From assembly GCA_017592775.1 (NCBI GenBank), contig JAGFNJ010000003.1, forward strand, positions 107,610 through 171,609: a stretch of DNA of 64,000 nt, given 5' to 3'. The DNA is from Candidatus Accumulibacter conexus (lineage in GTDB: Bacteria; Pseudomonadota; Gammaproteobacteria; Burkholderiales; Rhodocyclaceae). Made by a program: the position numbers and the translations under genes. This document shows positions 2,246 through 35,027 of the stretch, piece by piece; position 1 is the first letter of the stretch; each line of letters opens with the position of its first letter. The notes under the pieces were generated by a model. It saw only the letters and a program-made list of their open reading frames with translations. It did not search any database and had not been told where the DNA came from.

Positions 2246-5200
2246 ATGAATTCGCTGTCGCAACAACGGTGGCCACCGGTTCGTTGCGGGCACGCGATGC
2301 GACAGCGCGCCTTCGCCGTTCTCGCACTTCTCGTCCTGTCGCTGCTGGCCATCGCCTGGCCCGGCGTCGCGATCGCCATCCAGAACTGCCACGACTACAC
2401 CTACTACGCGCTGACCGGCGAGGACGGCAACATGCTGAGTGCCGGCGAACTGCGCACCCGCCTCACCGCGAGGGGCTACACCAGGTACAAGTACAGCACG
2501 TCGGCTGCGGTCGGCGAGCAGGGCGAGAAGGGGCGCTATCGCCCGGGCGACGTGCTCCTCTTCGGCGACAGCCATTCCGGCTTCGTCAACGCGGCGGGAA
2601 CGATCGACCATTATTTCCAGAGCTTCGTCGGCGACAGGCTGCCGCGCAGGAGCGAGGTCGTCGATCCACGCGACCTCGATTACCAGAAGACCCTTCTCAA
2701 GGGCTGGACCGTTCAGCGCATCCTGAAGGAGCACCGGAACTACCGCGCGGACCAGATCGAGATCTGGCGCAAGCGAAACCCCGACACGGTCGGCTTCGTC
2801 GAGTCCTGGGGCCAGGTCACCAAGGACGCCGGGCAGGTGAGCCTCGCCGTCCGCAGGACGGGCAGCGGCACGGGTGCGATCAGCGTGCAGATCGTTCCCC
2901 GAGGCGGCTCGCCGGGTTTCGGGACGGCATCGGCCGGTGTCAGCTACCGGCTCGCCAGCGACACGCTCAACTGGGCCGACGGCGAACTGGGCACACGGGC
3001 GGTCGAAGTCGAGATCCTGAACAGCGACGCCGAACCCGGCGACCTCGGACTCATGCTCGGTCTTGCCGTCAGGAGCGGCAATGCCCGCCCGGATCGCTGG
3101 CCGGAGACTACCCTCATGATCAATCGTGCGCCTGCCAGGCGCGACCGCGACCAGATGGGCGGCGAGATCAGCTTCGTCGAGGACACGGTCAACGCTGCTC
3201 CGGCCGACCGCCAGGTCCGGCTAATCGTCACCCGCGACGGCTTCAGCAAGGGAGAAGTGACGGTCGAGTACCAGTCGCAGGCCGGCAGCGCGCGACCGGG
3301 GATCGACTATACATCGGTCTCCGGCAAGCTCACCTGGACCGAGAGCGACAAGGGCATGCGCAGCATCGACGTTCCCATCCTGGCCGGTGCCGGCGTCGGA
3401 GCGGCGGCCAGCTTCACCGTCACGCTGGCCAATCCGTCCGGTGGTGCCCAGCTCGTCCGCCCTACGACGGTGACCGTGAACCTGCAGCGAGCCGCACCGG
3501 CGGCTCCCGGACAGGCGTTTTCCGGAGGTTCGAGGGACGGCCCGGCGGGTGCAGGGGAAAGCGAACGGAGTCCTCCCGCCGCACCGCCGCCGGCACGGCG
3601 CCAGGAATGCCGCCATCTGCGGCTGAGTCCGGATGCGGTCCGGATCGGCCCGGGCCGTCAGCTCAGCTTCAGCGCCATGGCGGTCTTCAGCGACGGTTCC
3701 GAGACTGATGTGACGCGCCTGGCGAGCTGGCAGCCGGGGCCGGCCAACACCTACACCGCGCCGCTGGAGGTGCGATTCAACGAGCGCGTCATCGTCAGGG
3801 CACGCTGGCACGACTGCGAGGGGAAGGCCACCATCGAGCTGCAGGCACCCGCGTGGACGCCGCCACTGAGCCACGCCGACGATCGCCGGCCGGGCGAACC
3901 AGGAACCGAGCCCTGGCGCCCGACCTGGTACGTCCTTTGCGACCGGAGCGGCCGCGTCGTCTACGGCGAAGACACCACCCCTGCCCTGTTCGGCATCATC
4001 GATGGCCCGTTCATGGGACCGCGACGCGCCGAACAGTGGATCCGGGAGAACTGTCCGCGAACCGTGTGCACGATCGAAAGCACACGCGGCGTCTGCGCCC
4101 GCGAGCCACCCGTGGCCGCAACCGGTGGAGACAACAGCTACCATGCCCTCTGCGATCCGGCCGGACGCGTCGTCATCAGCCGCTCCAGCAGCCTGCCCGG
4201 GCACAACGTGCTGTCACCGGCACTCGTTGGCGAGGCCGGCGCCCGCTGGTGGATCGAGCAGAACTGTCCCTCCTCGACCTGCACGCCCGGCGGAGCCTGC
4301 GTCCGTGCCGGCGCGATCCGCACCGGCAGCCGCTGGGCGGTGGTCTGCAGCCGGCGACACGGTGGCGTCGGCTTCACCGAGTACCCGAATCGCGTCGATA
4401 GCTGGGTCTGGGCCGAACATCTGCTGAGCGACGGCGACGCCCGCAACTGGATTGCCAGCAACTGCCCCAGCGAGCGTTGCGACCAGAATGGCCGCTGCCT
4501 GCCCGGCAGCCAAGCCACTGCTCTGACCGCTCAACAGCGGCCCGTCGAGGTGCCGACAGGCACCGTGCTCGACCTCTACGGACAGCGCGAGGGCTCGCGC
4601 CAGGGTGCCGGCGGTGGCAACCTTGGCCCGTACTGGGGTCCTGGCGGACGCTTCTCATCGGACACGTTGCGGCAGCAGATGGCGCGTGACGCGCAGACGC
4701 AACCGGCGGTGCGCGACGGTGACCATGGCTCCGGCAGCGGCGAGAGCCACTGCTCCAGCGACTCCATGTGCGGCGCCGGCTACCGCTGCCAGGCCGGCCA
4801 CTGTCTGCCGGCCACGGCCAGCGACGGTCCGCAGCAAAGCGGCGCGACGACTCGCGACGCGACCAGCCAACCGGCCGGCGGAGCAAGTCCGGCCGTCACC
4901 GCGGCTGCGGCGCCACCTGCCACACCGGCCATCCGGCCGGCTGCGACGGGCACTGTGCCAACTGCGACCCCGACCGGAGTCTACGAACCCAAGGGGAGCG
5001 GCCAGCCCTGCCTGCAGGTCGGGCAGCAGATGGAAGGGCGCTGTCGTCAGATGTCCGAGGACTGCAACCGTCGCAACTGCTCGGGCGGTGGTTACTCGGG
5101 CTGCGCCCTCGACTGCCCGGGCTGTGGCGGCTACTTCGGCAACTACATCGCCTGGTGCAGTCTGCACCCCAGCTACCAAGCGAAGGTGACGGCCGGCCTG

Positions 5201-24695: not shown

Positions 24696-24965
24696 GCTTC
24701 CTCCACGGCGGGCCCCGACGGACGACGATGACGATCGAGCGGTGCCCATGGCGATCGCCGCCAGCACTGCAAGCGTCCGAAGCGCGTGTGTTTCTCCATG
24801 CCCGTCCGCCGCGGCGCTGGCAGACGGGAAGAGTTTTCCGGGGCGCCGGGAGCGGGCTGGCGGATTGACACCCCTTGGCGCGGTCCCTACACTCGGCCTG
24901 CTGCGCCTGGATTGGTCATCCGTCGGCGCGAGCCAAGCGCAAACTGCTTCGCAGGGGAGGCCTGC

Positions 24966-25550
24966 ATGGGTGACATGAGCGAGCTGATGGACCGGGCGCG
25001 ACACCGCATCAGCGTCTGCGACTATCACAGGATGGCCGAAGCCGGTGTGTTCGGGCACCAGGACAGGGTGGAACTCATCGAGGGAGAGGTCTTCGACATG
25101 GCCCCGATCGGCAGCCAACACGCCCATGTCGTCAACCAACTGGCGCGCCTGTTCACGCTCGCCGCCGGCCAGGACTGCCTGGTCAGCACGCAGAATCCGA
25201 TCCTCCTCGGTGATCGCTCTGAACCGCAGCCCGACCTTGCCCTGCTCAAACCGGGCGACTACATGGCGCGCCTCCCCGGCCCATCGGATGTCCTGTTGAT
25301 CGTCGAGGTCGCCAGCTCATCCATCGACTACGACCGGGGCGTGAAACTCGAGCTGTACGCGCGGCACGGCATACCCGAAGTGTGGCTGCTTGACCTGACA
25401 GGCAATGAATTGCTCGTCTTTCGCGAGCCGGAGGGTGGGACCTATCGGTCCAGCGAAGCACCACACGCAGGGGACCCTGTCGGACCAGTGCTGTTGCCGC
25501 GGATTGAATGGCGGCTCGGTGAGGGGAAGACATGGGCCGTGCCCTTTTGA
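24966..25550 (+). CDS. Uma2-family restriction-endonuclease-fold protein (DUF820)
   Basis: A 194-residue protein of the Uma2/DUF820 family, which has a PD-(D/E)XK nuclease fold. Features: [25 protein letters not shown] at the N-terminal core, the acidic PQPDLALL strand, [10 protein letters not shown], and the [14 protein letters not shown] helix-strand. These genes are abundant in cyanobacteria and filamentous or metagenomic bacteria; their biological role is unknown and they are often linked to mobile DNA. A GGGGAGG ribosome-binding site precedes ATG 24966. It is followed after 49 bp by the yiaA-like gene. Confidence 0.88.
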
Positions 25551-26725: not shown

Positions 26726-26850
26726 CCGGCAACATCCGCCCGCGCGCCGCGGGCGCGGTCCGTGCGGGAAAAGACTACCGGATGGACTACCGGATGGGCG
26801 ACAACGGCGGCGCGTGACATCGCCGAACGGCTGCCTGAGGGACCAGGGTG

Positions 26851-27102
26851 CTTCCATGAGGCATCAGGATGCTTCCGTGAAGCGTCGGGATGCTTCCGTG
26901 AAGCGTCGTGATGCTTCCCTGAGGCGTCAGGATGCTTCCCTGAAGCGTCAGGATGCTTCCCTGAAGCGTCAGGATGCTTCCCTGAAGCGTCAGGATGCTT
27001 CCATGAGGCGTCAGGATGCTTCCCTGAAGCGTCAGGATGCTTCCCTGAGGCGTCAGGATGCTTCCCTGAAGCGTCAGGATGCTTCCCTGGGCGGTCGGCG
27101 TG
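26851..27102. repeat. 21-bp minisatellite, 12 tandem copies
   Basis: The unit is CTTCCCTGAAGCGTCAGGATG. The CTTCC block recurs exactly every 21 bp from 26851 to 27082. Copies differ mainly at the C/A/G after CTTCC and at A/G in TGAAG/TGAGG. Because 21 is a multiple of three, all frames remain open. The plus strand reads DASLKRQ heptads in the same frame as the gene at 27237; the minus strand reads PDASGKH or GSILTLQ heptads. No spacers are present, so it is not a CRISPR array. Confidence 0.95.
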
Positions 27103-27236
27103 CCTTTCGAAAGCCTCAGGATCGCCGTCACGGGCGTCAGACACGCGGTGCGTTGACACGACTGCCTGCGGCAACCTACCATTTTCGGCGAGGGACAATC
27201 CGTTTCTCGACAACTTCATATTCCGGGGGGAGCAAC

Positions 27237-27602: not shown

Positions 27603-27839
27603 ACCGCCGCGTGCCGGGCATCGGCGCATCGGCAACCGCGGGGGAAAGGACATGGCGTCTCGTCCCCCGCCGCAGCGACGCCGGTCGCCGCCCGTCGGTC
27701 CTTCACTTGGGATGCGGGCAGCAAGCGAAGCGGCCGCGGCCGTGACGCATTTGCAGGCAATTTTAGTGGACCAGCCAATGCGCCATCGTCTTCTTCCATC
27801 AGCGAATCTGCCGCACATCGTTGATGGCGATTGCATTTC

Positions 27840-27884
27840 GACGCAAAGCTTTGCGTCATGTAGCATTGCGACTTCACGTTGGAC
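27840..27884 (+). other. Possible attI/attC core site at the start of the cassette
   Basis: GTTGGAC at 27878-27884 fits the integron recombination core GTTRRRY. It lies 17 bp before the first cassette gene, where a cassette junction is expected. A perfect 18-bp palindrome (GACGCAAAGCTTTGCGTC, 27840-27857) lies just upstream. I cannot find a matching RYYYAAC on the left side, so it may be an attI-type site or a decayed attC. Confidence 0.35.
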
Positions 27885-27900
27885 ATCTTAAGGAGCCACA

Positions 27901-28350
27901 GTGAAGTCTCTTGGCATTGCACTGCAAAAGAATTTTCTGCGCTATGCGGTTCTGGATGGCGACTCAGGGAATCCAACCCTAGTGGAGAAAGGCCGTCAAA
28001 CCACTTGCGATCCAAATGACATTCCCGCGTTAATGGATTGGTATGAAACACATTTCCAGCACTTGATATCTGCTCACGCCCCAGATGTGATCGGATACAA
28101 ACTTGTCCTGGAACCCAAGATAGAACAGCAGCACAACCTTTCATTTCCGCTAGGCATTTTGAATCTCTTGGCACAAAAGGAAGGGATACCCATTAACGAG
28201 TTCTCACAGCGAGCAATAACACCTGCCAAGCTAGGCCTCGGAAAGACAACCGATCTGATGGTTCTTGTTGATGAAACGTTCGGCGAGCATCCACCGTATT
28301 GGGATAAGTACCAGAAGGAAGCTGTGTTAGTCGCGTGGTTTTGCCTATGA
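27901..28350 (+). CDS. Unknown protein, possibly RNase-H/RuvC-like fold, paired with a kinase
   Basis: A 149-residue protein starting at GTG 27901, five bases after AAGGAG (27890-27895). I do not recognise the family with certainty. The order of elements suggests an RNase-H/RuvC-like fold: an opening strand SLGIALQKNFLRYAVLDG, a helix, the strand PDVIGYKLVLEP, a GIPINEF strand and a final helix QKEAVLVAWF. The usual first catalytic Asp is not visible (Ala/Gln in that place), so it may be inactive or bind nucleic acid without cutting. GC content is clearly lower than in the flanking chromosome. The stop overlaps the kinase ATG (ATGA), so the two are made together. It is the first gene of a cassette closed by attC 29370-29436. 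Confidence 0.75.
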   Translation: MKSLGIALQKNFLRYAVLDGDSGNPTLVEKGRQTTCDPNDIPALMDWYETHFQHLISAHAPDVIGYKLVLEPKIEQQHNLSFPLGILNLLAQKEGIPINEFSQRAITPAKLGLGKTTDLMVLVDETFGEHPPYWDKYQKEAVLVAWFCL

Positions 28351-29363
28351 CTACTCCATCGACCATTGGGAAATACGTGCTACAGAAGCGCTTAGGGGGC
28401 GGTCATTTCGGCGAAGTATTCTTGGCCCATGATCGGGCTCTAGCCTGCAACAAGGCGATCAAGCTAGTTCAGATTGCCGACCCGTCGGAGATTATGCAGA
28501 AGCTCGGTGAGGCTCAAATCCTCGATAAATGTCGCCACAAGCACATCGTCCAGATCAATGAGGCCAACGTGTTTAACGTCGGCGGCGACAAGATTCTTGT
28601 ACTTGACCTTGAATACTTGCCCGAGGGGTCATTAGAGAGCGAGATGCAAAACCGCTGGATTTCGGCTAAGGAAGCATGCTCAAGAATTGCATGCGTGCTG
28701 TCTGGCCTGCACTTCGCCCACTCCAACGGATATCTACACCGAGACGTAAAGCCGGGCAATGTTCTCATTTCCGGCGACACCACCAAGCTCTCTGACTTTG
28801 GCTTGGCGACCACAACACTCAACTTGGTTGGCAGCGATCAAGGCTACCTCGCTCACTGCCCTCCAGAGTTTTACGACACTGGGGAAACAAGCGTATTGAC
28901 GGATGTGTTTGCTACAGGGCTCACCCTATTCAGAATCATCAATAACATCGCCGATTGGAGAGTTCAACTCAGCATTTTGCCAAAGGTCGATGAATTGATT
29001 CAGTCGGGGCGATTGACAGCTGCCATTGGTTACGAAGACTTCGTTCCCGAGAAGCTACGAAGAATCTCCCGGAAAGCCTGTCATCCCGATCCTGGCAAGC
29101 GCTATGGTTCCGCTCTAGATATGAAGGACGATCTAGATGCCCTACGTTTCGACATCGAGTGGCATAGATCAAGTCCAGACAATTGGTCTGGATTCTCTTC
29201 CGGGACAATTCACGAAATTGAAATCGTCGCAAAGCGAGGCGATTTTGAGGTCGTATACCGAAAGAATGGACGCCGTACTAATGCGCTTACCTCAGTGCAA
29301 CCAACAATTTACGATGCTAGAGCTGAGGCCGTGCGCATCGTCGCGCAAACCACGTTGAAGTAG
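28347..29363 (+). CDS. Hanks-type Ser/Thr protein kinase in an integron cassette
   Basis: A 338-residue eukaryote-like kinase. Visible motifs: glycine loop GGGHFGEVF (about residue 18), AIK lysine (about 36), catalytic loop HRDVKPGN (about 133), DFG in LSDFGLA (about 152), and a PPEFY in place of APE. The domain ends near residue 265. A 70-residue C-terminal extension follows, without a transmembrane helix or PASTA repeats, so it is cytosolic. ATG 28347 overlaps the upstream stop by four bases. The stop is followed six bases later by attC, as in integron cassettes. Its substrate might be the paired protein. Bacterial kinases of this type (e.g. Stk2) can act in abortive infection, but a defence role here is inference. 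Confidence 0.92.
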   Translation: MTTPSTIGKYVLQKRLGGGHFGEVFLAHDRALACNKAIKLVQIADPSEIMQKLGEAQILDKCRHKHIVQINEANVFNVGGDKILVLDLEYLPEGSLESEMQNRWISAKEACSRIACVLSGLHFAHSNGYLHRDVKPGNVLISGDTTKLSDFGLATTTLNLVGSDQGYLAHCPPEFYDTGETSVLTDVFATGLTLFRIINNIADWRVQLSILPKVDELIQSGRLTAAIGYEDFVPEKLRRISRKACHPDPGKRYGSALDMKDDLDALRFDIEWHRSSPDNWSGFSSGTIHEIEIVAKRGDFEVVYRKNGRRTNALTSVQPTIYDARAEAVRIVAQTTLK

Positions 29364-29369
29364 GCCGAT

Positions 29370-29436
29370 GTCCAACTCATCATTCCACCGGACCTGCGCG
29401 AAAAGCCGCGCAGGCCGGTGAATTCAGACGTTGAAC
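29370..29436 (+). other. attC recombination site (integron cassette end)
   Basis: The left core R'' GTCCAAC (29370-29376, RYYYAAC) and right core R' GTTGAAC (29430-29436, GTTRRRY) flank an imperfect palindrome. ACCGG-A-CCTGCGCG pairs with CGCGCAGG-CCGGT around an AAAAGC loop, and ATTCCACCGG pairs with CCGGTGAAT leaving an extrahelical base. Length (67 bp), cores and structure fit a canonical attC. It begins six bases after the kinase stop. Confidence 0.8.
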
Positions 29437-29621
29437 TAAAGCGCTGCGCGCTGGTGTAGGCACCCCACCGCAGCCCACCGCTCCTTCTCTTCTGGCTGTC
29501 GCCCCCTGAATTCGCTTTTGCCGTGACCCTGACGGGTCCGCGCCTCGCTTCCCACGCCGCCCGCAAAACCTCGATCCTCCTCGCTGCAGGGGACGTCCCC
29601 GCAGCCATCGAGGAGAGAGTC

Positions 29622-30470
29622 ATGAGTGAGCTGCGTGAACGCATGAGCAACGCGATGTGCCTGCGGGGAATGGCGGCACGGACGCAGGAAGCCTATCTCG
29701 GCGCGGTGGCTGATCTGGCGATGTTCTACCATCGATCCCCGGCCGAGCTGCGCGTCGAGGAGGTGCAGGCCTACCTGCTGCACCTGATCCGCGACAAGAA
29801 GCTCGCCTACGCGAGCGTCAATCAAGCCTCCTGTGCGCTGCGCTTCCTCTATCGGCGGGTGCTCGGCCGTCCGGAAGCCGGTTTCGACATCCCGATGGCG
29901 AAGGTGCCCCAGCGCCTGCCGCAGATTCTCTCGCGCGAAGAGGTCGCGCGGCTGATCGACGCGGCGCGAACGCTGCGCGGGCGAACGCTGCTGATGACCA
30001 CCTACGCCGCCGGCTTGCGGGTGTCCGAAGCGTGCAGCCTGCAGGTGGGGGACATCGAGAGCGCCGCCGATCGCATGTGCCTCAAGGTGTGCCACGGCAA
30101 GGGCGGCAAGGATCGCTACACGCTGCTGTCGCCGCGCCTGCTCGCGGCCCTGCGGACATACTGCCGTGACACCCGGCCGCAACGGTGGTTGTTCACCAAC
30201 CGCACCGGCAGCGGCCCGATGGAGATCCAGATCGCGCAGCGGATCTACTACGCGGCGCGCAACGCCGCCGGCATCGCCCCCGAAGGCGGCATCCACGGTC
30301 TTCGCCATGCCTTCGCCACGCACCTGCTCGAAGCCGGCGTCGATCGCTACCGCATCGGTCGGCTCCTCGGCCATGATCATCTGTCGACGACCGCGCGCTA
30401 CCTGCACCTGGCGCGCGCGCAGCTGACCGACCACACCTCGCCCCTGGAGCTGCTCGACCCGCTCACTTGA
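29622..30470 (+). CDS. Tyrosine recombinase/integrase accompanying IS91
   Basis: A 282-residue XerC/D-like recombinase. An N-terminal SAM-like core-binding domain (MSELRERMSNAMCLRGM...SVNQASCALRFLY) is followed by the catalytic domain with Arg in TYAAGLRVSEACSL (about residue 132), HGLRHAFATHLL (HxxR, about 226), LLGHDHLSTTARYLH with Tyr about 263. All catalytic residues (R-K-H-R-H-Y) appear present. A GAGGAGAGAG ribosome-binding site precedes ATG 29622. Recombinases of this type are regularly found upstream of IS91-family transposases. It is distinct from the decayed IntI at 26.2-26.4 kb. Confidence 0.92.
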   Translation: MSELRERMSNAMCLRGMAARTQEAYLGAVADLAMFYHRSPAELRVEEVQAYLLHLIRDKKLAYASVNQASCALRFLYRRVLGRPEAGFDIPMAKVPQRLPQILSREEVARLIDAARTLRGRTLLMTTYAAGLRVSEACSLQVGDIESAADRMCLKVCHGKGGKDRYTLLSPRLLAALRTYCRDTRPQRWLFTNRTGSGPMEIQIAQRIYYAARNAAGIAPEGGIHGLRHAFATHLLEAGVDRYRIGRLLGHDHLSTTARYLHLARAQLTDHTSPLELLDPLT

Positions 30471-30480
30471 GCCACCACCA

Positions 30481-31636
30481 GTGACGCTGGCCGAGGTCTT
30501 CCGCCGGTACGGGCCGGCGTACCTCGCCAGCCACGTCCTGTCGTCGGCCAGGGCGAAGGTCTGGCGGGCGATCGTCGCCTGTCGCACGGCCACTCGGCGG
30601 CCACGTCGAGACCTGTGACTGCTGCGGGGTGACGCGCCACGTGTATCACTCGTGCCGCAACCGCCACTGCCCGCAGTGCCAGACCCGGGCCAAGGAGGAC
30701 TGGCTGACGAAACGGCGCGAGGAGCTGTTGCCGGTACCGTATTTCCATCTGGTGTTCACCCTGCCGCATGCGCTGCACGCGCTGATCGGCCAGCGCCCGC
30801 GGGTGATCTACGAGATGCTCTTCGGCGCAGCATCGGCCACCCTCGGCGAGTTCGGCGCCAACCCGCGCTGGCTGGGCGGCAAACTGACGTTCTCGCTGGT
30901 GCTGCATACCTGGAAGCAGGACCTTGGCCGGCACGTGCATGTGCACGCCGTGGTTGCCGGCGGGGCGCTGACGCCCGCGGGGGAATGGAAGTCGCCGAAG
31001 CGCGGCTTCCTGTTTCCGGTCCGGGCGCTGTCGCGGGTCTTCCGCGGCAAGTTCATCGCGGCGCTGGGCGAGGCCCGAGGCGCCGGCCATCCGTTGGCCG
31101 AAGCGCTGGCCGACGAGAAGGTCTGGCGCGCCCTGCGCCAGCAGTTGCTGCGGCACGACTGGGCGGTCTACGCGAAACAGCCGCTCGGCGGCCCGGAGCA
31201 GGTGCTCGAGTACCTCGCACGCTACACGCATCGGGTGGCGATCTCGAACGAGCGTCTCGTCGGCATGGACGAGACGACGGTCCGTTTCCGCGTGCGCGCG
31301 ACGCCGGGCAAACGCGTCCTGCAGTTGCCGGCGGAGGAGTTCATCGAGCGCTTCCTGCTGCACGTGTTGCCGGGCGGTTTCAAGCGGATTCGGCACTATG
31401 GCCTGCTGGCACCGGCGGCGAAGTCGACGAAGCTGGCGCTGGCGCGCCAGGCCCTGTCGGTGCCGGCGCCCGATCCGGTGGTCACGGCGACGGTGGAGGA
31501 GTTCCTGCAGCGCGTCGGTCGCGCCGAGTGGGCGCGCTGTCCCCACTGCGGCGCGGGTCGGTTCGTGCCGACGGCGGCGATACCGCCCCTGCGTCAGGCG
31601 ACGCCGCAGGGCGCCTCGGTTCGTGGCCCGCCATGA
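30481..31636 (+). pseudogene. IS91-family HUH transposase, N-terminal frameshift
   Basis: The GTG at 30481 opens a frame reading VTLAEVFRRYGPAYL...KVWRAIVACRTA that stops at about 30618. The family sequence then continues in another frame as GGHVETCDCCGVTRHVYHSC, then CPQC, to 31636. A short indel at about 30588-30605 explains the break. The downstream part has the zinc-finger Cys cluster, the HUH motif HVHVHAVV, and the YLARYTHRVAIS tyrosine motif of Y1/Y2 rolling-circle transposases. Catalytic residues are therefore intact but the zinc-binding N-terminus is split. A shorter product from the GTG at 30629 is possible but probably inactive. Confidence 0.85.
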
Positions 31637-31841
31637 GCACGGCCAAGGGGTGGCGAGGGGATTGCTGTGGGCGATGGCGGTTCAGGCTGCCAGGGGGTGG
31701 CGCGTCACCGGCTCGCCGAAGGCTCCGTTTCCGCGCTGCTCGCCGTGGGTGGGAGTGTCTGGTTCTCTCCAGTCACCGGCTCGCGAGCACGGTGCGCCCC
31801 CCCTCTGCCTCTGCACCAGCCGTCTGGGTCTTGCCCGTGAC

Positions 31842-31869
31842 TTGACCGGCGGCACGGGACGCTTACAAT
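31842..31869 (+). promoter_or_regulatory. Sigma-70-like promoter reading into the SIR2-STAND cassette
   Basis: TTGACC (31842-31847) and TACAAT (31864-31869) are separated by 16 bp. It lies beyond the IS91 transposase and points right, through the attC site, towards the SIR2-STAND gene 245 bp away. IS91/ISCR elements are known to supply outward promoters; that role here is inferred from position. Confidence 0.5.
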
Positions 31870-31900
31870 CCCGATAAAGTACCGTCGTCGAGGCGCTTCA

Positions 31901-32027
31901 GTCCAACGAGGTTTATCTGCCGCGGATGCACCAGCGGCAAGGCCGGACGCTATCGGCGCGGCAGATAAACGCTATTCGTTCAAGGCCGGACGCTATCGGC
32001 GCGGCAGATAAACGCTATTCGTTAGGT
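31901..32027 (+). other. Second attC-like site with an internal duplication
   Basis: R'' GTCCAAC (31901-31907) and R' GTTAGGT (32021-32027) fit the integron cores. The 13-bp arms TTTATCTGCCGCG and CGCGGCAGATAAA can pair perfectly, extended by CGA/TCG next to the cores. The right arm is present twice because of a 43-bp tandem duplication, giving a total of 127 bp. With one copy removed the site would be 84 bp. It marks the left boundary of the cassette that holds the SIR2-STAND gene. Confidence 0.7.
31938..32023. repeat. Perfect 43-bp tandem duplication inside attC
   Basis: Units 31938-31980 and 31981-32023 are identical (each begins CAAGGCCGGACGCTATCGG and ends GCTATTCGTT). Each copy contains one right stem arm of the attC hairpin. 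Only the second copy is followed by the AGGT needed for a proper GTTRRRY core. Confidence 0.97.
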
Positions 32028-32113: not shown

Positions 32114-34558
32114 TTGATTGAAGCCGATACAGCAAGCCGAGTGCGAGATGCACTATTCGGACAGCGATATAACCTTCTTCTTGGTGCTGGCGTGTCGCTC
32201 GATTCAACGGATCGGCACGGCAACCCACTGTTGGGTGCGGAGGACTTACGTAAGAGCCTGTGCGCTAGCACATCTTCTCGTGAGTCGTCACCACTTTGGC
32301 GCGTGGCGGGACATTTAACGCCCGCCCAAGTCGAATCGCATCTAACCCAGCCATACCAAGGTTGCAAAGCCGGCCCCACTCTCAAGCAATTGCCCCAATT
32401 TGCTTGGCGCATAGCATTCACGCTAAACATTGACGATGCTCTGGAGGGCGCATATCAATGCAGCCCCGGAAGACTCCAATCCTTGATCCCGGTGAATTAC
32501 ACAAGAGAGTTTGAGACCTTTCGGAATCCACAAGAACTCCCCCTCATTCATCTCCACGGCTTTGTCCGATCACCAGGTGAGAAATATGTCTTCTCACTTC
32601 AAGAATATGCGACTGTGCAACGAGGGATGAATGCCTGGGTTCATATGCTCAGTAGTCTGATAATCTCGGAGCCTTTCATAATCGCTGGAACCACGCTGTT
32701 CGAGCCCGATTTAGAGTATTTCTTGGCGCATCGTCCAAGCAATTCGACAATCATGTCGCGCGCCCCATCTATCTTGGTGGAGCCTTTCCCCGACGCCGGC
32801 ACGCGAAAGGACTGCGAAAAGCTCAATCTCGTGTTGGTTGAGGCGACGTTGCATGACTTCTTGTCTTGGCTCGTCCAAGAGTTTGGCGCTGCCCCTTCCC
32901 CCTTGTCATTGCGAGAGCCGAGCGCCCGACCGCGCATCATTTCTATTCCGTCGACGCTTTCGAGTACTGCGTTCTGGTCGGACTTCGACTTTGTAACTGA
33001 AACTGATCGGGGTGTAGCAACGACGATAACCGCGCCATCAGCGTTTGCCTTTGGCCGTCCACCGAGCTGGGACGATATTCGAAAGAAGCGCGACGTACCA
33101 CTTCAAGACCAGCTGCAGCTGATTGATGAAGTGCGACGCTGGCAAGCGTCGGACGATCCCAATCAGTTCATCTGCTTTACTGGTCGGGCCGGAGCAGGGA
33201 AGTCAACTACAATACGGCGAGTAGCCACGGATCTCACCGCCCACGGCCTCCAAGTCTTCTATCTCAAGGCGAGAGCAGGATTCGATGTTACGTCGGCCTT
33301 CGAGTACTTTTCTCAGGTCGATGACCCCATCCTACTTGTAACCGATTCCTTGGCTGAGCACGGCGATCAACTTGTTGACCTAATTCAACAGATAGCTGGA
33401 TCCAGAAGAATCTGCGTTCTAGGTACCGAGCGGCAGTACCGAATGCGGTTGGTTCTGGAAATTCTTGCTGACGTACCCTACCGCCAGTTTGATGGCGGTC
33501 GTTGGCAAATCGAAGAGCGCACTGAGTTGATACGGCGGTACTCGGCGATGGGGGTTGTTGGCAATCATGATGCTCTTGCCGACCCGCAGAAATACGCTTC
33601 CAAGATTGCTGAGGACACAGTGGCGGAGGCTGTCTGTCGTATCCTCAATGACTTCCGCCCCCTCCGCACCATAGTTCGATCACTGTGGAATGATACCGTC
33701 GCCGACCGACGACCAGCTTATTTAGCCGTCGCACTGGCCTACTACTGCCATCCTGTTGGCATTCGACGAGACGTTATTTTTGATCTATACCGCTCCGAAC
33801 TAATTGAGGAGCTTGGCCTCGCGGATGCACCACTTCGCGTGTGCACTCATCCTGATGACACCGACTTTCTCGTCCCCGCCAACGCAACGCTCGCCACTCT
33901 CCTTCTGGAAGAGCTGTCTCGTCTAAAACCTCAACGGCTACTGGATATTTCCGCGCAACTGGCTAACGCGCTAGCACCATTTGTAACTCGTCACACAATC
34001 AAACAAAGGACGTCCGAGGCGCGCCTTGCGGGCAGGCTATTTGATGCAGACGGCGTGATGCCGGAACTCCTAAAGGAGCGGTTTGATACCTTCTACGAAG
34101 TGACTATTGAACGGTGGAGGTGGAATAGTCGCTACTGGGAGCAGCGTGCTCTTTGGGTCGGCGCACGAGATCGGCCACTATCCATACAGCATGCCCGTTA
34201 TGCGGTGGCAATTGAGCGCCATCCGTTTCCGATGACAACCCTTGCAAATGTATTGTTCTCGGCTATTGGCGAAACCACGCCACCGAAGCTCGAGTACTTC
34301 TCCGAAGCCCTAGGATTAATGGAGGAGACACTCCGCATCGAATCGAGTTGGGAGCGAGGCCGGACCCGGAAAGCCTACTGGGTAATGATTGAGGGCGTTG
34401 CAGTATTCATTAAGGCAGGCGGGAGCCTCACACCGCGACAATTCACTTTCGTTGAACGCGCAGTGGGCGATGCAATTCGTACGTCCCACTCTGACAGCGA
34501 TATACATGAACGCGCCACGGACGTACTACGGCTTGCCACAAGAGACAGCGGAACCTAA
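32114..34558 (+). CDS. SIR2-STAND NTPase, probable Avs5-type anti-phage protein
   Basis: An 814-residue protein starting at TTG 32114, six bases after AAGGAG. Residues about 1-275 resemble a SIR2 domain: LLLGAGVSLDS (NAD-binding glycine loop, about 20-30), TLNIDDALEGAY, LIHLHGF and GTTLFEPDLEYFL. A STAND-type P-loop NTPase follows, with Walker A GRAGAGKST (about 356-364) and a Walker B-like PILLVTDSL (about 403-411). Winged-helix and helical-repeat regions run to the C-terminus. In Avs5-type systems the repeats sense a phage protein, the NTPase oligomerises and SIR2 destroys NAD+. Here the trigger is unknown. GC content is low compared with the chromosome, and the gene lies in the cassette after attC 31901-32027. 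It is complete and without frameshift. Confidence 0.85.
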   Translation: MIEADTASRVRDALFGQRYNLLLGAGVSLDSTDRHGNPLLGAEDLRKSLCASTSSRESSPLWRVAGHLTPAQVESHLTQPYQGCKAGPTLKQLPQFAWRIAFTLNIDDALEGAYQCSPGRLQSLIPVNYTREFETFRNPQELPLIHLHGFVRSPGEKYVFSLQEYATVQRGMNAWVHMLSSLIISEPFIIAGTTLFEPDLEYFLAHRPSNSTIMSRAPSILVEPFPDAGTRKDCEKLNLVLVEATLHDFLSWLVQEFGAAPSPLSLREPSARPRIISIPSTLSSTAFWSDFDFVTETDRGVATTITAPSAFAFGRPPSWDDIRKKRDVPLQDQLQLIDEVRRWQASDDPNQFICFTGRAGAGKSTTIRRVATDLTAHGLQVFYLKARAGFDVTSAFEYFSQVDDPILLVTDSLAEHGDQLVDLIQQIAGSRRICVLGTERQYRMRLVLEILADVPYRQFDGGRWQIEERTELIRRYSAMGVVGNHDALADPQKYASKIAEDTVAEAVCRILNDFRPLRTIVRSLWNDTVADRRPAYLAVALAYYCHPVGIRRDVIFDLYRSELIEELGLADAPLRVCTHPDDTDFLVPANATLATLLLEELSRLKPQRLLDISAQLANALAPFVTRHTIKQRTSEARLAGRLFDADGVMPELLKERFDTFYEVTIERWRWNSRYWEQRALWVGARDRPLSIQHARYAVAIERHPFPMTTLANVLFSAIGETTPPKLEYFSEALGLMEETLRIESSWERGRTRKAYWVMIEGVAVFIKAGGSLTPRQFTFVERAVGDAIRTSHSDSDIHERATDVLRLATRDSGT

Positions 34559-34780
34559 TGTGCGACAATAGGGGACAGACCGTTCGCCGTGATCGGCGGT
34601 ATATCCAGCGGGTTAAAGTCCCGTGAAAGGAGTTGTCCGTACGCCTTTCTAGCACCGGGAAGCGGCGTTCGAGTAATCGGAGGTCGTAAGTTTCCCAAGG
34701 GCAAAGCAGGAGGCCGCAACGCAAGTGAACCAAGGAGCCATTAGGGGACAGACCACGGTCTGCTGAACGAGGGATGAGTC
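34559..34780. other. Intergenic segment with direct repeats and a group II intron-like fragment
   Basis: A 13-bp repeat TAGGGGACAGACC occurs at 34569-34581 and 34742-34754; the second copy is part of an inverted repeat (CAGACC/GGTCTG). Between them, GCGGGTTAAAGTCCCGTG and CGCAAGTGAACC resemble pieces of bacterial group II intron domain I, and GTGCGAC at 34560 fits the intron 5' consensus GUGYG. There is no reverse transcriptase gene. If it is an intron relic, insertion into the cassette's attC could explain why none is visible after the SIR2-STAND gene. The reading is tentative. Confidence 0.35.
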
Positions 34781-35027
34781 ATGAAGCGCAACGTATACGT
34801 TGAAACCTCGGTCATCAGATACCTGACGGCTCGTCCCAGCAAGACCATTCCCGGGGCAGCTCATCAGCAAATTACACTGGCTGGATTATCTGCTGACATG
34901 GAACTGTCGGCATATCGCAAACCCGGAGATACAAATACGCATTGCGGAGCAATTTGAGCAGATTGGTCTATTTCTACCCTTCATTTGTACACCGGAAGAA
35001 CTTCTTGGAGAAGCCAATGCTGAATGA
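34781..35027 (+). pseudogene. PIN-domain (VapC-like) toxin with internal deletion
   Basis: ATG 34781 opens MKRNVYVETSVIRYLTARPS, the N-terminus of a PIN-domain ribonuclease with its first acidic residue (Glu in VETS). After about 32 residues the frame is lost. In another frame the family's C-terminus follows at once: LDYLLTWNCRHIANPEI, then QIGLFLPFICTPEEL, ending at TGA 35025-35027. The middle about 80 residues that hold the other catalytic acids are missing. The gene is thus a deletion relic and cannot make an active nuclease. It overlaps the following small gene by 11 bp. Confidence 0.75.

What the first reader, a model, noticed from the sequence alone, without database searches (positions are those of the whole stretch)
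27879..29430. Two-gene cassette: RNase-H-like protein coupled to a Hanks-type kinase
The genes overlap (ATGA), share one ribosome-binding site region and one cassette boundary, and have low GC. The first protein resembles an RNase-H/RuvC fold lacking an obvious catalytic Asp. The second has all kinase motifs and no membrane anchor. I know no named system with this pair. Mobile two-gene units with a kinase and a nucleic-acid-binding-type protein are plausible anti-phage or stress-signalling systems, with the kinase as effector and the partner as sensor or substrate.
Basis: partly seen in the sequence, partly recalled or inferred. Interest (0 to 1): 0.85.

Follow-up and report, generated by a model that had tools for sequence, protein, structure and literature searches.

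The report
Integron cassette: dead-RuvC plus phage-exclusion kinase
A small mobile gene cassette carries a DNA-junction-enzyme look-alike that has lost its cutting residues, joined to a protein kinase; the same kind of pair sits in Shiga-toxin prophages, where the kinase is reported to abort infection by a rival phage, so this is probably a two-gene anti-phage module whose first half has been overlooked.

Summary
A 149-aa gene (27901-28350) and a Hanks-type kinase gene (28347-29363) overlap by ATGA, share one ribosome-binding site and form an integron gene cassette, 27879-29430, between an attI-like site and a 67-bp attC. GC is 0.505 against 0.666 for the window.

The pair is conserved: in 57 of 58 loci with a family-type small protein (33 of 34 distinct ones) the kinase lies next to it; in the other the contig ends. 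The kinases form one clade against 25 other kinases (SH-aLRT 99). Pairs occur in Stx and lambdoid prophages, a Bacillus SPbeta phage, type I restriction operons, beside DarTG-type genes, and before an attC in a second genome.

The small protein is RuvC-like without the catalytic acids: Asp is Ala and Glu is Lys here; the Glu column is basic in 24 of 24 rows.

The prophage version is 933W Stk, reported to abort HK97 infection, so "no named system" is wrong, while the anti-phage idea gains support. I propose a Stk-type abortive-infection module with a nuclease-dead RuvC regulator. Defence by this copy, the partner's role and its ligand are untested.

The parts
27725..27884 (+). attI-like site; core GTTGGAC at 27878-27884, crossover after G 27878
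   Evidence: 27840-27889 is 90% and 27725-27771 is 81% identical to the DNA beside an integron integrase gene of the same genome (L179); a TGACGCAA.GCTTTGCGTCA ... ACTTCACGTT block is shared by the 4 loci aligned; in G006 the same site is 83% alike up to 27880 and then carries another gene
27879..29430 (+). integron gene cassette, first after the attI-like site, holding both genes
   Evidence: between the two GTT crossover points; GC 0.505 against 0.666
27890..27895 (+). ribosome-binding site AAGGAG before gene 1
   Evidence: sequence
27901..28350 (+). gene 1: RuvC-like protein without the catalytic acids, 149 aa, GTG start
   Evidence: no Pfam hit on its own, weak NCBIfam RuvC 0.024; family profile against RuvC profile 97.8%; family profile against PDB RuvC 7w8d 3.4e-4; active-site columns A, K, Y, E
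28347..28350 (+). ATGA overlap of the two genes
28347..29363 (+). gene 2: Hanks-type kinase, 338 aa, with a C-terminal extension of about 80 residues behind the kinase domain
   Evidence: PF00069 5.4e-33, residues 9-253 of 337; PHROG 2361 serine-threonine kinase 3e-43; clade with the prophage Stk kinases
29370..29436 (+). attC site closing the cassette: R'' GTCCAAC 29370, R' GTTGAAC 29430; hairpin -38.9 kcal/mol on the bottom strand (RNA parameters)
   Evidence: 29372-29432 is 95% identical to a site in the array beside intI; hairpin; under the strict rule, set after the site had been seen, one call on each strand of the window, which by the values is this site, and 1 call in 20 simulated 64-kb sequences
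29390..31980 (+). IS91-like element with its own tyrosine recombinase (29628-30470) and Y2 transposase (30629-31636); context, not part of the pair
   Evidence: 91% copy at G000:C35; Pfam
32114..34558 (+). SIR2-like plus STAND NTPase gene, a defence-type neighbour; context
   Evidence: PF25199 1.6e-19, SIR2_2 4.3e-9; weak PADLOC mad8 1e-5 and ThsA 7.4e-4

Best explanation
A Stk-type abortive-infection module packed as an integron cassette. The kinase is the effector, kept quiet in uninfected cells; on phage infection it is switched on, phosphorylates cell proteins and stops phage growth at the cost of the cell. The RuvC-like partner, translated first and coupled to the kinase, is the regulator: a nuclease-dead junction-binding fold that senses a product of phage DNA metabolism (branched or annealed recombination intermediates, or the phage protein that makes them) and releases or activates the kinase. 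Shown here: the pair, its conservation, the lost active site, the kinase motifs, the cassette structure, the homology with 933W stk. [quoted passage not shown] Inferred: defence by this copy, regulation by the partner, the ligand and the targets.
For: Kinase next to the partner in 57 of 58 family loci, the other ending at the contig edge 3 bases on; 33 of 34 distinct partner frames. Partner next to 4 of the 30 Hanks kinases looked at in six genomes, the 4 being the family itself. Kinases one clade, SH-aLRT 99; Y..H..PE activation-segment motif in 17 of 20 family rows and 0 of 25 others. Immunity region repressor - DUF3024 - small - kinase in phage JLK-2012, EDL933 and a prophage-like region of a Providencia plasmid; the 933W kinase is cotranscribed with cI and aborts HK97 infection (PMC3564112); [quoted passage not shown] Defence-type neighbours: hsdM-hsdS-small-kinase-hsdR on two plasmids, DUF4433 and macro-domain genes, SIR2-STAND gene here; TIR genes in the array beside one intI of this genome; at the same attI-like site in G006 a DUF4238 gene, weakly matching PADLOC DUF4238-Pers. 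E66 column R/K in 24 of 24.
Against: No phage test exists for this copy, and it is only about 29% identical to the Stk kinase and 11% to its partner. The passages I could read name only the kinase, so the need for the partner in 933W is unknown to me. No structure could be predicted. PADLOC has no model for the partner. In 6 of 57 loci the kinase is split between frames (L024, L050, L053, L059, L093, L189): assembly error or decay. One member, L024, keeps Asp in the first column and a GFDLG motif. An attC was found at only 1 of the 6 other pair loci scanned (L002; not L049, L050, L023, L024, L126), so the cassette form is not general. No promoter was found by the scan.
Confidence: 0.68

Rival explanations
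1. Toxin-antitoxin pair in the plain sense: the partner binds and silences a toxic kinase, is degraded or displaced on stress, and needs no nucleic acid. The module stabilises its cassette or prophage, and defence is a by-product.
For: Order and overlap (small gene first, ATGA) are typical of antitoxin-toxin operons (recalled); Stk is reported near-silent in uninfected cells; integron cassettes often hold toxin-antitoxin pairs (recalled).
Against: The partner has the fold of DNA-junction enzymes by profile, and its former Glu became basic in all 24 rows, which suggests a kept nucleic-acid or acidic ligand; but an acidic ligand could be the kinase itself.
Confidence: 0.35
2. A regulatory kinase-substrate pair with no defence role, for example controlling recombination or cassette and prophage behaviour through phosphorylation of the RuvC-like protein.
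For: RuvC ancestry; found in integron and prophage settings.
Against: 933W Stk has a reported phage-exclusion phenotype; pairs sit inside type I restriction operons and beside other defence-type genes.
Confidence: 0.15
3. The partner is still an active junction nuclease that uses other residues, and the kinase regulates it.
For: The last acid is kept as E or D in 21 of 23 rows with a letter there; one member, L024, keeps D in the first column and a GFDLG motif.
Against: The E66 column is R or K in 24 of 24 and the D138 column has no D in 24, though E in 13; 33 of 34 distinct family frames lack the GIDPG-like motif that 52 of 54 RuvC-type hits have.
Confidence: 0.05

Closest known systems
Stk locus of Stx prophage 933W (PHROG 2361 kinase, PHROG 3875 RuvC-like partner)
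   Same: Same gene order, homologous kinase and partner, overlapping genes, kinase C-terminal extension, mobile context
   Different: About 29% kinase and 11% partner identity; HRD here, HFD there; integron cassette rather than repressor operon; no DUF3024 gene; described in the passages I could see as a kinase alone
RuvC Holliday junction resolvase
   Same: Fold by profile over about 135 columns
   Different: Catalytic acids lost; coupled to a kinase; shorter
PD-T4-6 and MADS MAD6 defence kinases
   Same: Hanks-type kinase domain; PADLOC models match it (mad6 2.9e-37, PD-T4-6 2.6e-35)
   Different: NCBIfam MAD6 score 103 bits against a cut-off of 460; no MADS operon recognised; PD-T4-6 is single-gene (recalled)
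HipA-like kinase pair DS-6 of DefensePredictor (PMC13092281)
   Same: Two genes, kinase with a non-kinase partner, defence lost in a catalytic mutant (passages)
   Different: HipA-related kinase and a DUF3037/DUF1829 partner, not Hanks kinase and RuvC fold
Integron-borne phage-defence cassettes (work of Darracq, Kieffer, Getz and colleagues)
   Same: Defence genes as attC cassettes in chromosomal or mobile integrons (passages of PMC12409362)
   Different: No RuvC-like/kinase cassette in the passages read; the Darracq and Kieffer papers are not held, so this is not a check of their lists

Membership tests
933W-type Stk phage-exclusion module | kinase in the same clade as prophage Stk | tested here: met
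   20 of 20 family rows on one side of a 99 SH-aLRT branch, 25 other kinases on the other; quick tree without bootstrap, outgroup from six genomes only, family rows picked and trimmed with a family profile
933W-type Stk phage-exclusion module | RuvC-like partner directly upstream | tested here: met
   PHROG 3875 for the prophage partner, but no PHROG hit for the window partner itself
933W-type Stk phage-exclusion module | expression from the repressor operon of a prophage | tested here: not met
   integron cassette; no repressor or other phage gene recognised beside it when reading the ORFs; this is context, not the module
933W-type Stk phage-exclusion module | aborts phage infection by kinase activation | not testable with these tools
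   needs a bench test
RuvC resolvase | four catalytic acids (D7, E66, D138, D141; numbers recalled) | tested here: not met
   window A, K, Y, E; reference RuvCs D, E, D, D in 8 of 8
RuvC resolvase | RuvC fold | tested here: inconclusive
   supported by profiles: hhalign 97.8% over 135 columns, PDB RuvC 3.4e-4, PHROG name of prophage relatives; no structure model
Integron gene cassette | attC with R'' and R' and hairpin at the 3' end | tested here: met
   29370-29436
Integron gene cassette | attI upstream | tested here: met
   by similarity to the DNA beside an intI gene
Integron gene cassette | integron integrase gene beside the array | tested here: not met
   none at this site; three IntI hits over the cut-off elsewhere in the genome (contigs C12, C1, C68)
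MADS | MAD6 kinase over its curated cut-off | tested here: not met
   103 against 460 bits
MADS | mad1-8 operon | tested here: not met
   of 7 neighbouring ORFs scanned against PADLOC only the SIR2-STAND gene touches a mad model, mad8 at 1e-5
PD-T4-6 | single-gene defence kinase matching its models | tested here: inconclusive
   many PD-T4-6 models match, but they seem to match Hanks kinases broadly, and this one has a partner

The most novel reading that the evidence does not exclude
A class of two-gene immune modules, spread through prophages, integrons and restriction operons from Bacillus phages to proteobacteria, in which a nuclease-dead RuvC reads phage recombination intermediates (or the annealing protein that makes them) and fires a Hanks kinase. 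It would explain 933W exclusion of HK97: I recall, without a source found here, that the HK97 trigger is Orf41, and by gene order in the HK97 record that would be the Erf-like annealing protein.
Probability: 0.3. Interest if true: 0.85.

Novelty: new variant of a known kind. Interest (0 to 1): 0.62.

Why it matters
It ties the reported kinase-driven exclusion by a Stx prophage to a wider mobile family and names a neglected second component with a lost active site. That makes the question of what activates the kinase directly testable. It also adds a kinase-based module to the defence-type cargo of integrons, and gives a sequence signature (basic residue in place of the RuvC Glu, Y..H..PE in the kinase) by which defence-finding tools could pick it up.

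Tried and rejected
Housekeeping RuvC as the identity of gene 1: rejected. The 54 weak profile hits without a kinase (L092 set aside) are a distinct set: 52 of 54 have the GIDPG-like motif, against 1 of 34 distinct family frames, L024; the 4 checked in Pfam are true RuvC. A MADS kinase: not supported; PD-T4-6: undecided. Searches of plasmids, phages and viral contigs with the window's gene-1 protein gave nothing, as did A5 and L002 in viral contigs; the window-type subfamily is rare, and the link to the prophage type came through the kinase. Promoter and terminator scan empty. No attC found at L049, L050, L023, L024 or L126, although the L049 DNA is 70% alike from 27869 on. A search on MADS was badly worded and useless; one for integrons and kinases returned mainly noise. 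Orf41 as the Stk trigger was sought; no listed paper held it together with 933W, so it stays recalled.

Full report
OBSERVATION. Gene 1 runs from GTG 27901 to TGA 28350 (149 aa) behind AAGGAG; gene 2 from ATG 28347 to TAG 29363 (338 aa), with an ATGA overlap. Gene 2 is a Hanks-type kinase (PF00069 5.4e-33) with its motifs in place and no likely membrane segment. The stretch has GC 0.505 against 0.666.

IT IS AN INTEGRON CASSETTE. 29370-29436 is a 67-bp attC (GTCCAAC ... GTTGAAC, hairpin -38.9 kcal/mol on the bottom strand with RNA parameters), 95% identical over 61 bases to a site in the array that follows an integron integrase gene elsewhere in the same genome (G000:C12:79555-80499, E 4.4e-147). 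27725-27884 resembles the DNA beside that integrase, with a block shared by the four loci aligned. At the same site in another species of the genus (G006) a DUF4238 gene follows instead, which weakly matches a PADLOC candidate. No integrase gene lies at this site. Under a strict rule, which I set after seeing the site, the window gives one call on each strand (this site, by the values) and 20 simulated 64-kb sequences give 1. A pair in another family of the class (G411, L002; 50% and 47% identity) is also followed by an attC, 2968-3034, and preceded by GTTGGAC, which suggests that the pair has travelled as a cassette more than once; G411's two integrase genes over the cut-off lie far away. Five other pair loci scanned (L049, L050, L023, L024, L126) showed no attC.

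CO-OCCURRENCE. In genome screens, family-type partners with a kinase were found in 1 of 101, 2 of 369, 3 of 398, 2 of 399 and 1 of 299 genomes; the own genome is one of these in the first four, thresholds differ, and the screens overlap. The further hits were weaker, and none has a family kinase in its locus. Recounted by script over 58 loci (window, L002, L019, L020, L021, L023, L024, L049-L095, L126, L151, L189, L190), a family kinase starts beside the partner's end in 57; the miss, L092, ends 3 bases after the partner. Many are near-copies: there are 34 distinct partner frames, 33 with a kinase, and the largest identical set has 17 loci, of the E. coli prophage type. In 6 loci the kinase is split between frames (L024, L050, L053, L059, L093, L189); in L189 an IS1 lies just behind. 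Reverse control: of 39 Hanks-kinase places in six genomes, loci were given for 30, and 4 of 30 have the partner, all four being the family.

KINASE TREE. 45 rows: 20 family kinases, picked by hand as one or a few per near-identical set, and 25 others. Left out were L117 (no profile hit), L106, L107, L114 (duplicates of L023, L024, L002), the further near-copies among L051-L091, the split kinases L050 and L093, and L092. The two groups are separated by one branch of SH-aLRT 99; L024 is a long fragment; the method was 'quick', without bootstrap. The motif Y..H..PE in the activation segment is in 17 of 20 family rows (not L023, L090, L126) and 0 of 25 others. Window, L049 and L002 have HRD; the prophage-type group HFD; L019 and L020 HND; L024 HGD.

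PARTNER. Alone it has no Pfam or PHROG hit and only a weak RuvC hit in NCBIfam (0.024). The family profile aligns with RuvC at 97.8% probability, E 9.6e-13, over 135 columns (the 38 RuvC rows had been collected as weak hits of the same family profiles, so this is partly circular). Further support: PHROG 3875, named RuvC-like resolvase, for the prophage partners (7.8e-91 for L051, 2.9e-24 for L094), and RuvC entries as the two best PDB hits of the profile (3.4e-4 and 0.046; a third hit, BstYI, 0.15). The columns of the four acids (8 of 8 reference RuvCs D, E, D, D) read in 24 family rows: R 19, A 2, H 1, N 1, D 1 (L024); R 20, K 4; no D (E 13, others 11); E 19, D 2, N 2, gap 1. The protein is therefore very probably nuclease-dead, with the site turned basic; that it still binds junction DNA is inference.

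WHAT IS KNOWN. The prophage-type pair lies in the immunity region repressor - DUF3024 - partner - kinase in phage JLK-2012 (kinase named stk), in EDL933 and in a prophage-like region of a Providencia plasmid; records of phi24B and related phages call the region similar to 933W. The E. coli pair is found by DNA similarity in 223 of 5426 complete E. coli genomes. Passages read: the 933W kinase is cotranscribed with cI and aborts HK97 superinfection (PMC3564112); [quoted passage not shown] The original paper (Friedman 2011) is not held. I recall, without a source here, that the HK97 trigger is Orf41. In the HK97 record Gp40, an Erf-like annealing protein, two recombinase entries and Kil (Gp43) follow in that order, so Orf41 would be the Erf-like protein. 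Searches for a described RuvC/kinase defence pair (and a term search in one paper) showed none in what I saw of the held library, which lacks most subscription journals.

OTHER SETTINGS. hsdM - hsdS - partner - kinase - hsdR on a Novosphingobium plasmid, and the same with a GIY-YIG gene on a Methylocystis plasmid; beside DUF4433 and macro-domain genes (DarT and DarG types, names recalled) in Mesorhizobium; in Bacillus phage SPbetaL7 behind a tyrosine recombinase gene, with two related viral contigs; beside a gene with Schlafen AlbA_2 and RecG-C-type domains in a Desulfobacteraceae MAG with 82-83% partner identity.

MECHANISM. Most likely an abortive-infection module: kinase effector, partner as regulator that reads phage DNA metabolism. 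The reasons are the 933W phenotype, the strict coupling, the dead but conserved junction-enzyme fold, and the defence-type surroundings. The partner could instead be a plain antitoxin; present data do not decide.

VERDICT. Real, conserved, mobile, and a new variant of a known but little-studied kind (Stk exclusion).

Noticed in passing
window 29390-31980: IS91-like element with a tyrosine recombinase and Y2 transposase; several matches in genus genomes begin at about 29427-29431, the attC crossover, so it may target or travel between attC sites.
   Followed up: partly
window 31901-32027: A second attC-like stretch with a perfect 43-bp tandem duplication (31938-31980 and 31981-32023), just before a SIR2-STAND gene; it falls short of the strict rule.
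   Followed up: partly
window 32114-34558: 814-aa SIR2-like plus STAND NTPase protein with low GC, probably another defence gene.
   Followed up: partly
window 26813-27164: Array of 21-bp repeats (11 overlapping registers) upstream of a phasin-like gene; ORFs of G006 at the same site read through a similar array.
   Followed up: no
L179 9226-13157: The array beside one of the genome's intI genes holds FRG and two TIR-domain genes, one also near ThsB_TIR.
   Followed up: partly
L019, L020: Partner-kinase pair between hsdS and hsdR of type I restriction operons on two alphaproteobacterial plasmids.
   Followed up: partly
L089 2314-5038: Bacillus phage SPbetaL7 carries the pair behind a tyrosine recombinase gene, all annotated hypothetical.
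   Followed up: partly
window 34742-34882: Stretch repeated at 79-92% in other genus genomes near integron-type sites.
   Followed up: no
window 24786-25550: 254-aa ORF matching PADLOC candidate PDC-S03 (2.2e-13).
   Followed up: no
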